Source: Bdellovibrionota bacterium
Lineage (GTDB): Bacteria > Bdellovibrionota > Bdellovibrionia > Bdellovibrionales > Bdellovibrionaceae
Reading direction: 5' to 3'
NCBI GenBank assembly: GCA_963170155.1
Contig: CAUJGP010000032.1
Location: 1-64,000 of the forward strand
Length of the DNA: 64,000 bases
Below, in pieces: positions 57,709 to 61,806 of this stretch. Position 1 is the first letter of the stretch; each line of letters starts with the position of its first letter. The notes below the pieces were generated by a model. That model was not told the origin of the DNA, searched no databases, and worked only from the letters and a program-made list of their open reading frames with translations. Both the position numbers and the translations under genes were made by a program.

Positions 57709-59412
57709 CTATTGTTGGAATAAATATTGGCATCGTTTCTTCGTAGAAGCGATCTTGGCTTTCTCTGTCACTGACTTAAAAAAATCCCAACCATCTTGTC
57801 GATACTTTTCGGCCAACGGAACGCTATTTTGATCTAGAATACTTTGCCATTGCTGAGAAAAATCTTTGCCGGTTTTTAACTTCACTTCTTCAACCATACT
57901 GTTGAGTCCTTCGTTTATGGAATCTCGCCCTTCTCTAAAACTTATAACTTCATCCGGAAAAATGATCAGGGGAACAAGAATCTCGACCTCTGGGTAAGCA
58001 GATGTAATATTCGAAACTACCCTCTTGCGATCAATATTAACGGCAACAATGCCTCCCAAGATCTTCTCTCTTTTTTTACCATTAATCACTGTTGTTTCGA
58101 AAGATCGACTAAAATTTCGTGCCAGAGACGGGTTGTAAGTCAACGACAAAAAAGAGGAGGCGTGAGGATTCCCAGCATGATGAATGAATTGATCAGAGAT
58201 TTTAGATGGAACTAATTTTAAAGATTTAACACCCCCAAATGGCTGAAAACTCTCCAAACTCTCTCTATAAAGAATATCACCATTGGCAATACGATTGGTG
58301 GTCAAAGATCTGAGACGACGAGTATAACTCCCTTGATTGGCCGAAAGCATTGTGGAAAAAAAACCAATTCGATGACCATCTTCTGATCGTTGTATTTTGT
58401 CAGTTTGATAATCTAATCCACGCCAAGCTACAATAGTATCATTCCAATTGGGTTTCTCAATGGCATTGAGCCAAGTTTTCCAGGCTTGAGTTTCAAAAGG
58501 TTCCATGACTACCCACGGAAGATAGGCTTCTAGCATCTCCCTGACGCCCTTTCGATCATTTGCAAGAATCAAATCATTGAGCTTTTGATCCATGCTTTCA
58601 TATTTTTCCAATAAGCCTGTTTTTTTTCTCCACTCAATCAATTCCCTATTTTTTGTCCTCTGCTGCTTCTGAGCTTGCAAAAGCAATCGATTTAAATTGT
58701 CGCTTAAATGACGTCGAGTCATTTCTACGCTTTTTTGCAAATCCTCCAAGGGGCCATTGAATTGTATATTCGAGATGAGATTGAGTTTAAACTCTTCTAG
58801 GCGAGCCTGTGCCACGAGACTGCCTTGCTGAGCATTGAACAATAACTCAGAAAAAGAGAATATCTTATTGCTAATATCAACCATTGTCAGCAAAGGGTTA
58901 TTCCTTACATGATGTCTAAGAGAAATAACAATATTTGCGGGGCTCTCAGAAACAGGTAAATAGAAATACACCATTAATTTGATCATAGCCATCATGGCAA
59001 TTTCAGGAATTGCTACAGACGGATTTTTTGCGGCCTCAGAAGAAAGATTGAGCGTTACTTGTGCGTAATCAGATTTAAAATCAACAGTCACTTTCGCTGG
59101 TTCAACTTGAGCTTTATCAACAACAATATTAGATTTAAACCGCATAAGGGTAAATTTAAACCACATATGGTCAGAGACACCATCTAAGCTCTCCAACTCT
59201 TGATTATTTGTTTCAAAAGTTAAATCTTTTTCCAAAATCTGAAGTATCGATTGATTTTTTCCATCTTCAAGAACCGTAGCCTTTGCTAACGGTTGATGAA
59301 TAATAAATGGGAAATGTTGAAAAAAATCACTCTGTAAAATGGATAATGAATTGAAAATAAAATAACTAATGGTGAATAAGCCAATTTTCTTCAATAAAAT
59401 AAAATATCTCAT
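57709..59412 (-). CDS. exported protein with ADP-ribosyltransferase-like C-terminal domain
   Basis: A 567-residue protein with an N-terminal hydrophobic export signal or anchor (about 8-45). The middle (about 50-310) is helical and unrecognised. About 322-495 shows the order of an R-S-E type mono-ADP-ribosyltransferase: Arg331 in A-W-R-G-L, the S-x-S/T strand F-L-S423-L-T-Y-N-P followed by A-R-N-F, and the E475-V-E477 motif in Y-P-E-V-E-I-L-V-P, then a hydrophobic strand D-E-V-I-S-F. Such domains move ADP-ribose from NAD to a target, with ExE favouring Arg. AAGGA lies six bases before the ATG. It follows the 785-residue gene by 36 bases, same strand. Lack of activity or a fold-only match remains possible. 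Confidence 0.7.
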   Translation of the reverse strand: MRYFILLKKIGLFTISYFIFNSLSILQSDFFQHFPFIIHQPLAKATVLEDGKNQSILQILEKDLTFETNNQELESLDGVSDHMWFKFTLMRFKSNIVVDKAQVEPAKVTVDFKSDYAQVTLNLSSEAAKNPSVAIPEIAMMAMIKLMVYFYLPVSESPANIVISLRHHVRNNPLLTMVDISNKIFSFSELLFNAQQGSLVAQARLEEFKLNLISNIQFNGPLEDLQKSVEMTRRHLSDNLNRLLLQAQKQQRTKNRELIEWRKKTGLLEKYESMDQKLNDLILANDRKGVREMLEAYLPWVVMEPFETQAWKTWLNAIEKPNWNDTIVAWRGLDYQTDKIQRSEDGHRIGFFSTMLSANQGSYTRRLRSLTTNRIANGDILYRESLESFQPFGGVKSLKLVPSKISDQFIHHAGNPHASSFLSLTYNPSLARNFSRSFETTVINGKKREKILGGIVAVNIDRKRVVSNITSAYPEVEILVPLIIFPDEVISFREGRDSINEGLNSMVEEVKLKTGKDFSQQWQSILDQNSVPLAEKYRQDGWDFFKSVTEKAKIASTKKRCQYLFQQ

Positions 59413-59448: not shown

Positions 59449-61806
59449 CTAATTAAAAATATTTGCGCATTTTAGATGGCCAATGAGGCCTGAAATCTCT
59501 TTCATGCGATAAAGACCCTTTGCATCTTGCTCAAAAACAAAGCCATAACTCTTCATTACTTTTTGTTCATATTTTTCGACAAGAGAGTTCTCGCCTTGAT
59601 AAAATTCAATGCTATCATTAAGGAGTCGCGCCTCTTTATCTGAAATCAATGAAAGCTCAATCATGGGATTTACAATGGATTGGATTCGAGTCCAACGATC
59701 CAATCCTATTTTTTTATTTAATTCTAAAAGAGAAAACCCTTCCGCAAAGACTTTGAATTGTTCTTTCATTTTAGGGTTAAAAGTACCACTCATTAAGGTC
59801 TCAGAATAAAATCCCATTTTTGTTTTAGAAGGAAGGCTTTTTCGAATTTCCAAAAGAACGGTTTCCAAAGTGTTTAAAGCCTTTGACAAATCATCACGAT
59901 TAAAAGGTTTTTGAGTTTTTAAAAGTTGTTCCAAGTCTATGTTGTCTTGGGCTCCCTTTTTCACCGCAAGATGAGCAACTTGCTTTTGGGACAACGGATC
60001 TCTTGACGAACGAAGTTGCTGAACTTTCCTGAAAGTTGATTTAAAAGCGCTATCATTCGGCAGCATCTCAAAGTTAGCAATGGCAGAAGTAATATTTCTT
60101 TCCTGAAAAAGAGATGATATCAATTTAAGTTGATTTGTCTTCCTTTTCGTAGATTGGCTGGCCGCTTGGGCTAAGGTTTCATGATCTGAACCCACAATAT
60201 CCGATATTAAAAAGTAAGCTTGTAACCTTGCCTGCGGTCCCAGATGCTCCCGCAAATAGCCTGTTTCAACCTCGACGATATCAATATTATTTTTTTGTTT
60301 TTGAAGCCAAAGATCCGTCTCTTCGAAAGGCGTATGCACCTGGCCAACGGTGAATCGTTTCATGGTTTCAGGCACATGTTTGGCCAGGGTTAAATCAAGT
60401 AAATGCCCCTTATGAGTTTGAACCTTTGAAGCAGCAACCAGATCCCCCACTTTAAGCCCTTTATTGATGAGAGCTCCAGCTGTTCCGATATAAACAACAT
60501 TTTTATGATTGCCTGTTTTACGAAGAGCCTTTGCAATCGGGATAATTTCATCACCCCAAACTGCAGAAAAGAATCTCCATCGTTGGATATTTCCATTTTT
60601 ATCCTGAAAAAGGTAATCTGAAAATTCATGACTCTGTTGTTCCGAGTTAAACTGAGCATAATTGCGGTAAAAGGGGTCACTTGATTGCTTATAAGCTTCG
60701 GCCCAATCCACAGGACCTGAAGCAAAAACGTCATAATGAAAAGCTCCGGAAGTTTGAACTTTATTCAAAATTTTATCAAACTTAATCTCTTTGTGATTTG
60801 GTAAATTTAACTTATTTGATAAATCTTTTTTTTCGGTAAAAATAACATCCATAAAACCCGCTGACCGAATAGCATCTTCAAAAGCACCTTTTTGCCCTAT
60901 AATCACTTGATCCGCATGAGGAAGACGATGGAGTAAATCAACCAGTTGTGCTTCTACCTTTTGATGCATTTTCGAAGTATTCCCCAGAATACGAACTTTA
61001 TCTTTATTGGAAAAAAATGTTTTCCCATTCACTGTGATTAATCTTAATTGCGCCATCAAATGCTTAACGCGATCTTCTCCAGAAATTTGATTAATGATAT
61101 AAACATATTTTTTTATTTTATGATCATAGGCTAAATAAATTTTATTATAATTACGAGCTAATGGTATAATTTCTTGAATGACTTCTATATCTGTATTTTT
61201 TAAATTTTCTTGAAAAGATTTTTCAGTCCCTATATGAAACTCAAATTCACGATCATGGATAATGGCATCCCAAACAATCGCCCGACTGGTTTTTTCAGAA
61301 ATATAACGCTCATGATCCAAAAGCACTTTACTCCCTTTAATTTTTGGAACTGTCCGCAGGGTGGGATTTTTAGTATTTTCCAGACCTCCCCAAGCCAATG
61401 AATGATTTGAAAAATCGCGAATTTTATATCGACCCAAAAGCTTATTCTTAAAAAAATTATAATTCCAAAAAAGACGAGAGGAGAGATCCTCAAGGTAAGT
61501 TCTGTTGGGAAACTTATGTGTCAGCACTTGAGCAGTCAAATCAGCCCATTTTTGTGAATTATTTAAATCCTCATTTTTTAAATTAAGATTAAGGTAATCC
61601 TCTACGACAAGATCTCGAAGATCTGCTACTAATTGAGCATCTTGCTTTCCAGAGAGCGCATCTGACAAAGCCTTATTATAGTAATCCAAGCGGTCAATAC
61701 CCAAAAGTATTGCAATCGAAGTTCGAGCAGGAGCGTGACTTACATTTTCAGTATACCCAAAACTCAATAGACCTATAAGAATAGAAGCAATAATTGTCAT
61801 TTTCAT
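59449..61806 (-). CDS. exported protein with nucleoside-phosphorylase-like domain
   Basis: A 785-residue protein with a signal peptide (about 1-25). Residues about 354-550 look like the PNP/UDP phosphorylase (MTAN) fold: V-W-G-D-E leading to a helix, V-V-Y-I-G-T-A-G-A-L (438-446), L-K-V-G-D-L-V-A-A (451-459), V-E-V-E (511-514, in place of the usual M-E base/ribose motif) and I-S-D-I-V-G-S (534-540). The catalytic details differ, so it might cut N-glycosidic bonds or merely bind a nucleoside. The N-terminal 350 and C-terminal 230 residues are unrecognised and largely helical. First gene of a two-gene unit with the ADP-ribosyltransferase-like gene. No strong site before the ATG. Confidence 0.7.
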   Translation of the reverse strand: MKMTIIASILIGLLSFGYTENVSHAPARTSIAILLGIDRLDYYNKALSDALSGKQDAQLVADLRDLVVEDYLNLNLKNEDLNNSQKWADLTAQVLTHKFPNRTYLEDLSSRLFWNYNFFKNKLLGRYKIRDFSNHSLAWGGLENTKNPTLRTVPKIKGSKVLLDHERYISEKTSRAIVWDAIIHDREFEFHIGTEKSFQENLKNTDIEVIQEIIPLARNYNKIYLAYDHKIKKYVYIINQISGEDRVKHLMAQLRLITVNGKTFFSNKDKVRILGNTSKMHQKVEAQLVDLLHRLPHADQVIIGQKGAFEDAIRSAGFMDVIFTEKKDLSNKLNLPNHKEIKFDKILNKVQTSGAFHYDVFASGPVDWAEAYKQSSDPFYRNYAQFNSEQQSHEFSDYLFQDKNGNIQRWRFFSAVWGDEIIPIAKALRKTGNHKNVVYIGTAGALINKGLKVGDLVAASKVQTHKGHLLDLTLAKHVPETMKRFTVGQVHTPFEETDLWLQKQKNNIDIVEVETGYLREHLGPQARLQAYFLISDIVGSDHETLAQAASQSTKRKTNQLKLISSLFQERNITSAIANFEMLPNDSAFKSTFRKVQQLRSSRDPLSQKQVAHLAVKKGAQDNIDLEQLLKTQKPFNRDDLSKALNTLETVLLEIRKSLPSKTKMGFYSETLMSGTFNPKMKEQFKVFAEGFSLLELNKKIGLDRWTRIQSIVNPMIELSLISDKEARLLNDSIEFYQGENSLVEKYEQKVMKSYGFVFEQDAKGLYRMKEISGLIGHLKCANIFN

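What the first reader, a model, noticed from the sequence alone, without database searches (positions are those of the whole stretch)
57709..59412. Exported protein with an R-S-ExE ADP-ribosyltransferase signature
Seen: in the C-terminal half, W-R331-G-L, then F-L-S423-L-T-Y-N-P, then Y-P-E475-V-E477-I-L-V-P, in the order and spacing (about 90 and 50 residues) of R-S-E ADP-ribosyltransferases. Known: these residues bind NAD and, with ExE, usually modify arginine. Inference: an exported, possibly prey- or envelope-directed ADP-ribosylating protein with a large unrecognised N-terminal region.
Basis: partly seen in the sequence, partly recalled or inferred. Interest (0 to 1): 0.82.

Follow-up and report, generated by a model that had tools for sequence, protein, structure and literature searches.

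The report
Predator-bacteria ADP-ribosyltransferase paired with nucleosidase
Bdellovibrio-type predatory bacteria and their relatives carry a previously undescribed family of exported proteins with the active-site residues of NAD-using ADP-ribosyltransferases, almost always encoded beside or fused to an exported nucleoside-cleaving enzyme, which suggests a two-part tool for acting on nucleotides or proteins outside the predator cell.

Summary
In one sequence the motif means little: a loose R-S-ExE pattern occurs in 31% of shuffles. Across 87 homologs, however, the four residues are among the 11 most conserved of 259 domain columns (R 85/86, S 85/86, E475 85/86, E477 86/86). Profile comparison with PF03496 ADP-ribosyltransferases of the same phylum gives 78-88% probability (0/60 shuffles), S and ExE in register; T4 ModA/ModB align more weakly, with R, S and ExE in register together. 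So this is very probably a divergent R-S-E ADP-ribosyltransferase, missed by Pfam, NCBIfam and PDB sequence search. A structure search of the full-length model was inconclusive. The R-S spacing (92) is longer than in the relatives measured (18-26). In 369 genomes the two co-occur (48 with both; p 6e-51), as operons in either order or as one fused ~1280-aa protein. Each window protein has a single cysteine, near its C-terminus. Activity and target are untested.

The parts
57709..59412 (-). ART-like exported protein, 567 aa
   Evidence: Complete ORF; 87 distinct homologs in Bdellovibrionota
59278..59412 (-). N-terminal hydrophobic export signal, residues 1-45 (possible cleavage after ...PLAKA)
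   Evidence: Sequence inspection; Bdellovibrio homologs have classical signal peptides and Bacteriovoracales homologs lipobox-like starts
58591..59277 (-). N-terminal region, residues 46-274, mostly helical, no recognised family
   Evidence: No Pfam/NCBIfam match; AF2 secondary structure
57889..58590 (-). ART-like domain, residues 275-508
   Evidence: Conserved columns; hhalign to PF03496 members prob 78%, E 1.8e-5, and 88% for residues 400-505
58420..58422 (-). R331, proposed NAD-binding arginine
   Evidence: 85/86 homologs
58144..58146 (-). S423 of the S-x-[ST] motif
   Evidence: 85/86 homologs; aligns with T4 and PF03496 S
57982..57990 (-). E475-V-E477, proposed catalytic E-x-E
   Evidence: E475 85/86 (other Q), E477 86/86
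57730..57732 (-). C561, the only cysteine of the ART protein, 7th from the C-end
   Evidence: Cysteine census: 57 of 64 split homologs have exactly one Cys beyond residue 40, and in these it lies 5-13 residues from the C-end
59449..61806 (-). Partner: exported MTA/SAH-nucleosidase/PNP-fold protein, 785 aa, upstream in the same operon
   Evidence: PF01048 in 12 of 15 homologs, best E 1.1e-8; Foldseek to MTA nucleosidase/PNP, E 2.2e-7, prob 1.00, 520 hits at E<=0.001
60097..60921 (-). Nucleosidase-fold domain, about residues 296-570, with GTAGA, VEVET and ISD motifs
   Evidence: Alignment A3; hhalign register with E. coli Mtn GSAGG, VEME and ISD motifs; the N-terminal boundary is inferred from the motif VIIGQKGAFE at 301-310
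59467..59469 (-). C780, the only cysteine of the partner, 6th from its C-end
   Evidence: Cysteine census; Cys in last 16 aa of 26 of 27 split partner sequences, fragments included

Best explanation
The gene encodes an exported member of a divergent R-S-E ADP-ribosyltransferase family found so far only in Bdellovibrionota. It works as one half of a two-enzyme unit with the neighbouring exported MTA/SAH-nucleosidase-fold protein. Shown by computation: near-invariant R-S-ExE residues, profile-level relation to known ARTs, the nucleosidase fold of the partner, tight genomic linkage including fusion, and export signals. Inferred: the ART domain binds NAD+ with R331 and S423 and uses E477, with E475 helping to position the acceptor, to move ADP-ribose to arginine-containing or other targets outside the predator cytoplasm, most plausibly in or on prey, where NAD+ is available. 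The nucleosidase domain would cleave a purine N-glycosidic bond in the same nucleotide pool. The lone C-terminal cysteine on each protein would link the two partners, or a further partner, by an interchain disulfide.
For: R331, G332, S423, E475 and E477 kept in 85-86 of 86 homologs down to about 20% identity; p 1.8e-6 for all four named positions. hhalign to PF03496 ARTs from the same phylum: prob 78% (whole domain), 88% (S-E half), 0 of 60 shuffles as good, S and ExE in register; positive control PF03496 vs T4 ARTs prob 97%. T4 ART profile alignment puts R, S and ExE in register at once. Partner: PF01048, Foldseek E 2.2e-7. Linkage: 48 of 50 genomes with a strong partner hit also have the ART, 6 of 319 otherwise. 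Three architectures: partner-ART operon with about 22-nt overlap in Bdellovibrio, ART-partner operon in genus g72, and 21 fused proteins. Export signals on both proteins. Single C-terminal Cys in both.
Against: No Pfam, NCBIfam, PHROGs or PDB sequence match for the ART protein. Foldseek of the full-length model gave no significant ART match. The R-S spacing is much longer than in the ARTs measured here. An intact R-S-ExE motif does not guarantee activity: restoring it in human ART4 gave no activity (PMC2576468). NAD+ is scarce in a periplasm, so the site of action is uncertain (own knowledge). The single Cys could be structural or modified rather than disulfide-bonded.
Confidence: 0.66

Rival explanations
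1. The ART-fold domain and its nucleosidase partner are a nucleotide-scavenging or NAD-destroying pair: the ART domain acts mainly as an NAD+ glycohydrolase and the partner removes the purine, so that prey nucleotides are broken down for uptake or to cripple prey metabolism. No specific protein target is needed.
For: The partner is a nucleosidase-fold enzyme and PF01048 domains in phage defence degrade (d)ATP (PMC10952713). Co-occurrence and fusion argue for a shared substrate pool.
Against: E475 is kept in 85 of 86 homologs, which is typical of arginine-modifying ARTs rather than plain hydrolases (R-S-ExE described as typical of arginine-specific ARTs, PMC2576468).
Confidence: 0.2
2. A degenerate or repurposed ART fold: the conserved residues are kept for structure or for binding NAD-like ligands, and the protein is a sensor or structural subunit of the nucleosidase rather than a transferase.
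For: The long R-S insert and lack of detection by ART models; a few members with a changed residue at R331 or E475.
Against: Near-complete retention of all catalytic positions, including the double glutamate, across very divergent members.
Confidence: 0.08
3. Not an ART: an unrelated exported domain with a coincidental R...S...ExE arrangement.
For: Loose motif found in 31% of shuffles; no significant Foldseek match; no library hit.
Against: Profile-profile score to PF03496 members beats all 60 shuffles with S and ExE in register, and the residues named beforehand are among the most conserved ones.
Confidence: 0.06

Closest known systems
PF03496 ADPrib_exo_Tox-type R-S-E ADP-ribosyltransferases (members in the same phylum, L159-L178)
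   Same: FRG, STS-xxxxxAxxF and ExEVLLP motifs; S and ExE in register by hhalign, prob 78-88%
   Different: R-S spacing 18-25 against 74-98; no PF03496 match for the window protein or in its genome; no NQGSYTRRLRSL insert
Phage T4 ModA/ModB arginine ADP-ribosyltransferases
   Same: YRG, SFS-xxxxxA-R-x-F and ExExMxP motifs aligned with R331, S423 and E475/E477; R-S-ExE active site as described for ModA and ModB (PMC10468400)
   Different: Cytoplasmic phage early proteins of about 200 aa; weak profile score (prob 8-51% depending on the cut); different spacing
Rifampin ADP-ribosyltransferase Arr (2hw2, 9iaf)
   Same: The named ART among the Foldseek hits of the model
   Different: Hits not significant (E 4-6); small cytosolic antibiotic-modifying enzyme
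MTA/SAH nucleosidase and purine nucleoside phosphorylase superfamily (PF01048), for the partner
   Same: Fold (Foldseek E 2.2e-7); GTAGA, VEVET and ISD motifs aligned with E. coli Mtn
   Different: Exported, 785 aa with a large unrecognised N-terminal region, linked or fused to an ART-like protein; below the Pfam cut-off in the window copy (17.8 against 25.1 bits)

Membership tests
R-S-E ADP-ribosyltransferases (arginine type) | Arginine before G on the first core strand | tested here: met
   R331 in 85/86 and G332 in 86/86 homologs; strand 326-334 in the model
R-S-E ADP-ribosyltransferases (arginine type) | S-x-[ST] motif on a strand followed by a helix | tested here: met
   S423 85/86, position 425 mostly T or S; strand 421-425 then helix 428-434
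R-S-E ADP-ribosyltransferases (arginine type) | E-x-E motif | tested here: met
   E475 85/86 (other Q), E477 86/86
R-S-E ADP-ribosyltransferases (arginine type) | Order and spacing of the three motifs | tested here: inconclusive
   Order met; S to E477 37-66 here against 38-45 in PF03496 relatives and 69-74 in T4 ARTs; R-S 74-98 against 18-26 in both
R-S-E ADP-ribosyltransferases (arginine type) | Profile similarity to known members | tested here: met
   hhalign prob 78-88% to PF03496 members, 0/60 shuffles as high; single-sequence HMM scans negative
R-S-E ADP-ribosyltransferases (arginine type) | Split beta-sandwich fold | tested here: inconclusive
R-S-E ADP-ribosyltransferases (arginine type) | NAD+-dependent transferase activity | not testable with these tools
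   Needs an assay
PF03496 as defined by Pfam | Score over the curated cut-off | tested here: not met
   No match in the window protein or its genome
PNP/MTAN superfamily PF01048 (partner) | Fold of the superfamily | tested here: met
   Foldseek prob 1.00, E 2.2e-7, 520 hits at E<=0.001
PNP/MTAN superfamily PF01048 (partner) | Pfam match | tested here: met
   12 of 15 homologs match, best 1.1e-8; the window copy alone has E 0.0022, below the cut-off
PNP/MTAN superfamily PF01048 (partner) | Catalytic Glu of VEME and Asp of ISD | tested here: met
   V-E512-V-E514 and IS-D536 invariant in A3 and in register with E. coli Mtn
PNP/MTAN superfamily PF01048 (partner) | Hydrolase or phosphorylase activity | not testable with these tools
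   Needs an assay

The most novel reading that the evidence does not exclude
A predator-specific two-enzyme complex: an exported ADP-ribosyltransferase joined by an interchain disulfide through terminal cysteines to an exported nucleosidase, acting on prey outside the predator cytoplasm; in part of the phylum the pair is made as a single polypeptide.
Probability: 0.25. Interest if true: 0.85.

Novelty: new variant of a known kind. Interest (0 to 1): 0.62.

Why it matters
Little is known of the enzymes with which predatory bacteria take over prey. Searches of the held library for Bdellovibrio with ADP-ribosyltransferase, ADP-ribosylation or nucleosidase returned no paper whose title or abstract start describes such an enzyme in these predators. 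A family kept in about 15% of the searched Bdellovibrionota genomes, with intact catalytic residues and a fused or adjacent nucleosidase, offers named genes and residues for a direct test of whether predators ADP-ribosylate prey. PF03496 matches in 68 of 359 genomes suggest that ADP-ribosylation is common in the phylum.

Tried and rejected
Pfam, NCBIfam and PHROGs scans gave no informative hit for the ART protein, and PADLOC none for the partner. PDB sequence search gave nothing for the ART. A single-sequence scan of genome contigs found nothing; the alignment-based scan did. Foldseek against the viral library gave nothing. hhalign in global mode and against T4 Alt alone failed. The idea that the CxxxF tail is a genome-wide sorting tag was checked on the sampled pattern-hit loci from five genomes: the only ORF ending found was the already known gene at the same type of locus, so it looks locus-specific, on a small sample. 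The hhalign probability against T4 ranged from 8% to 51% with different domain cuts, so the T4 link alone is treated as suggestive.

Full report
Observation. The ORF at 57709-59412 (minus) is complete and encodes 567 aa. R331, S423, E475 and E477 are at the stated positions. A loose R-S-ExE pattern turns up in 31% of shuffles of the protein and a strict form in 0.4%, so the single sequence could not carry the claim.

Family. No Pfam, NCBIfam, PHROGs or PDB sequence match of note exists. Genome searches gave homologs in 54 of 369 Bdellovibrionota genomes; the named records include Bdellovibrio, Bacteriovorax and Halobacteriovorax and MAGs labelled Bdellovibrionales. Of 87 distinct sequences, R331 is kept in 85/86, G332 in 86/86, S423 in 85/86, E475 in 85/86 (the other Q) and E477 in 86/86. 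All four residues named beforehand are among the 11 most conserved of 259 columns (p 1.8e-6).

Relation to known ARTs. As yardsticks I used phage T4 ModA/ModB relatives and PF03496 members found in the same phylum. Against T4, the maximum-accuracy alignment set R, S and ExE in register together, with a modest score (29.7 against 17.3 +- 3.9 for shuffles, 2 of 100 as high). Against PF03496 members the link is firmer: prob 78%, E 1.8e-5 for residues 275-508 and prob 88%, E 2.9e-6 for 400-505, with 0 of 60 shuffles as high in either case; the positive control, PF03496 members against T4, gave 97%. In the PF03496 alignment S and ExE are in register but R is not, probably because this family has an insert with conserved NQGSYTRRLRSL between R and S. 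R-S spacing is 74-98 here against 24-26 in T4-type ARTs and 18-25 in PF03496 members.

Fold. The AlphaFold2 model has pLDDT 69.7 and pTM 0.75. Its secondary structure puts R331, S423 and the E-x-E on or next to strands in the expected order. Foldseek of the full-length model found no significant match; Arr, a rifampin ADP-ribosyltransferase, is at ranks 6 and 12 with E 4-6. The viral library gave nothing. Domain-only folding was beyond the caps.

Partner. The gene immediately upstream (59449-61806, 36 nt apart, same strand) matches PF01048 weakly by itself, but 12 of 15 homologs match, best 1.1e-8, and its model matches MTA nucleosidases and purine nucleoside phosphorylases with E 2.2e-7 and prob 1.00. 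The VEVET and ISD motifs fall on the VEME and ISD motifs of E. coli Mtn. The arginine of the phosphorylase R-V-G-S-C-G motif is absent (Y-I-G-T-A-G here), which by family knowledge points to a hydrolase. The two-gene unit is flanked by a convergent ferredoxin-like gene (identified from its sequence) and a divergent FecR-like gene.

Linkage. Of 50 genomes with a strong partner hit 48 also have the ART; of 319 others 6 do (Fisher p 6e-51, uncorrected for shared ancestry). The pair occurs as partner-ART operons, often overlapping by about 22 nt, in Bdellovibrionaceae; as ART-partner operons in genus g72; and as a single polypeptide of about 1280 aa in 21 sequences. Change of order together with fusion argues for a functional link rather than mere neighbourhood. 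Some ART-family paralogs stand without the partner (for example L057 and L060).

Export and cysteines. Bdellovibrio homologs have classical signal peptides, and many Bacteriovoracales homologs of both proteins have lipobox-like starts. Each window protein has exactly one cysteine, C561 and C780, near its C-end. Of 64 split ART homologs 57 have a single cysteine beyond residue 40, and a Cys lies within the last 16 residues in 79 of 85 members (5% expected). A third, unrelated exported protein at some ART loci (L058, L060) also has one cysteine in its mature part, in the same kind of tail. A lone cysteine in an exported protein cannot form an internal disulfide, so an interchain bond or a tail modification is the simplest reading. 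This is inference.

Mechanism. Best reading, confidence 0.66: an exported R-S-E ADP-ribosyltransferase acting with a nucleosidase outside the predator cytoplasm, most likely in or on prey. The ART-fold assignment itself I hold at about 0.9, and transfer rather than plain NAD+ hydrolysis as the main reaction at about 0.7 given that fold. The motif does not prove activity: restoring R-S-ExE in human ART4 gave none (PMC2576468). Rivals are a nucleotide-degrading pair (PF01048 domains degrade (d)ATP in phage defence, PMC10952713), a repurposed ART fold, and coincidence.

Literature. Searches for Bdellovibrio with ADP-ribosyltransferase, ADP-ribosylation or nucleosidase returned 8, 8 and 4 papers, none with a title or abstract start describing such an enzyme in these bacteria; I did not read them in full. 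Most subscription papers are not held.

Noticed in passing
window 57730-57732 and 59467-59469: Each of the two window proteins has a single cysteine, 6-7 residues from the C-end, a feature kept across the family.
   Followed up: partly
L058:7373-8698 and L060:6840-8186: An unrelated exported protein of 441/448 aa beside divergent ART homologs ends in CSKVFQ/CSQVFN with one cysteine in its mature part; no confident Pfam match.
   Followed up: partly
L126 (G144:C1:1807000-1816000): A tandem array of several ART-family paralogs, most with lipobox-like starts.
   Followed up: no
68 of 359 Bdellovibrionota genomes; examples L159-L178: PF03496-type ADP-ribosyltransferases are widespread in this phylum.
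   Followed up: partly
L154:498-2687 (G000:C37): The window's own genome encodes a second, distant nucleosidase-like protein with GTAGA and ISD motifs and no Pfam match.
   Followed up: no
G174:C206: A PF03496 match lies about 1.1 kb upstream of a nucleosidase-partner gene on the same strand.
   Followed up: no
window 59449-61806, residues about 160-260 of the partner: Highly conserved YIS-RTTRA-FW and ARNYNKIYLV segments with no recognised domain.
   Followed up: no
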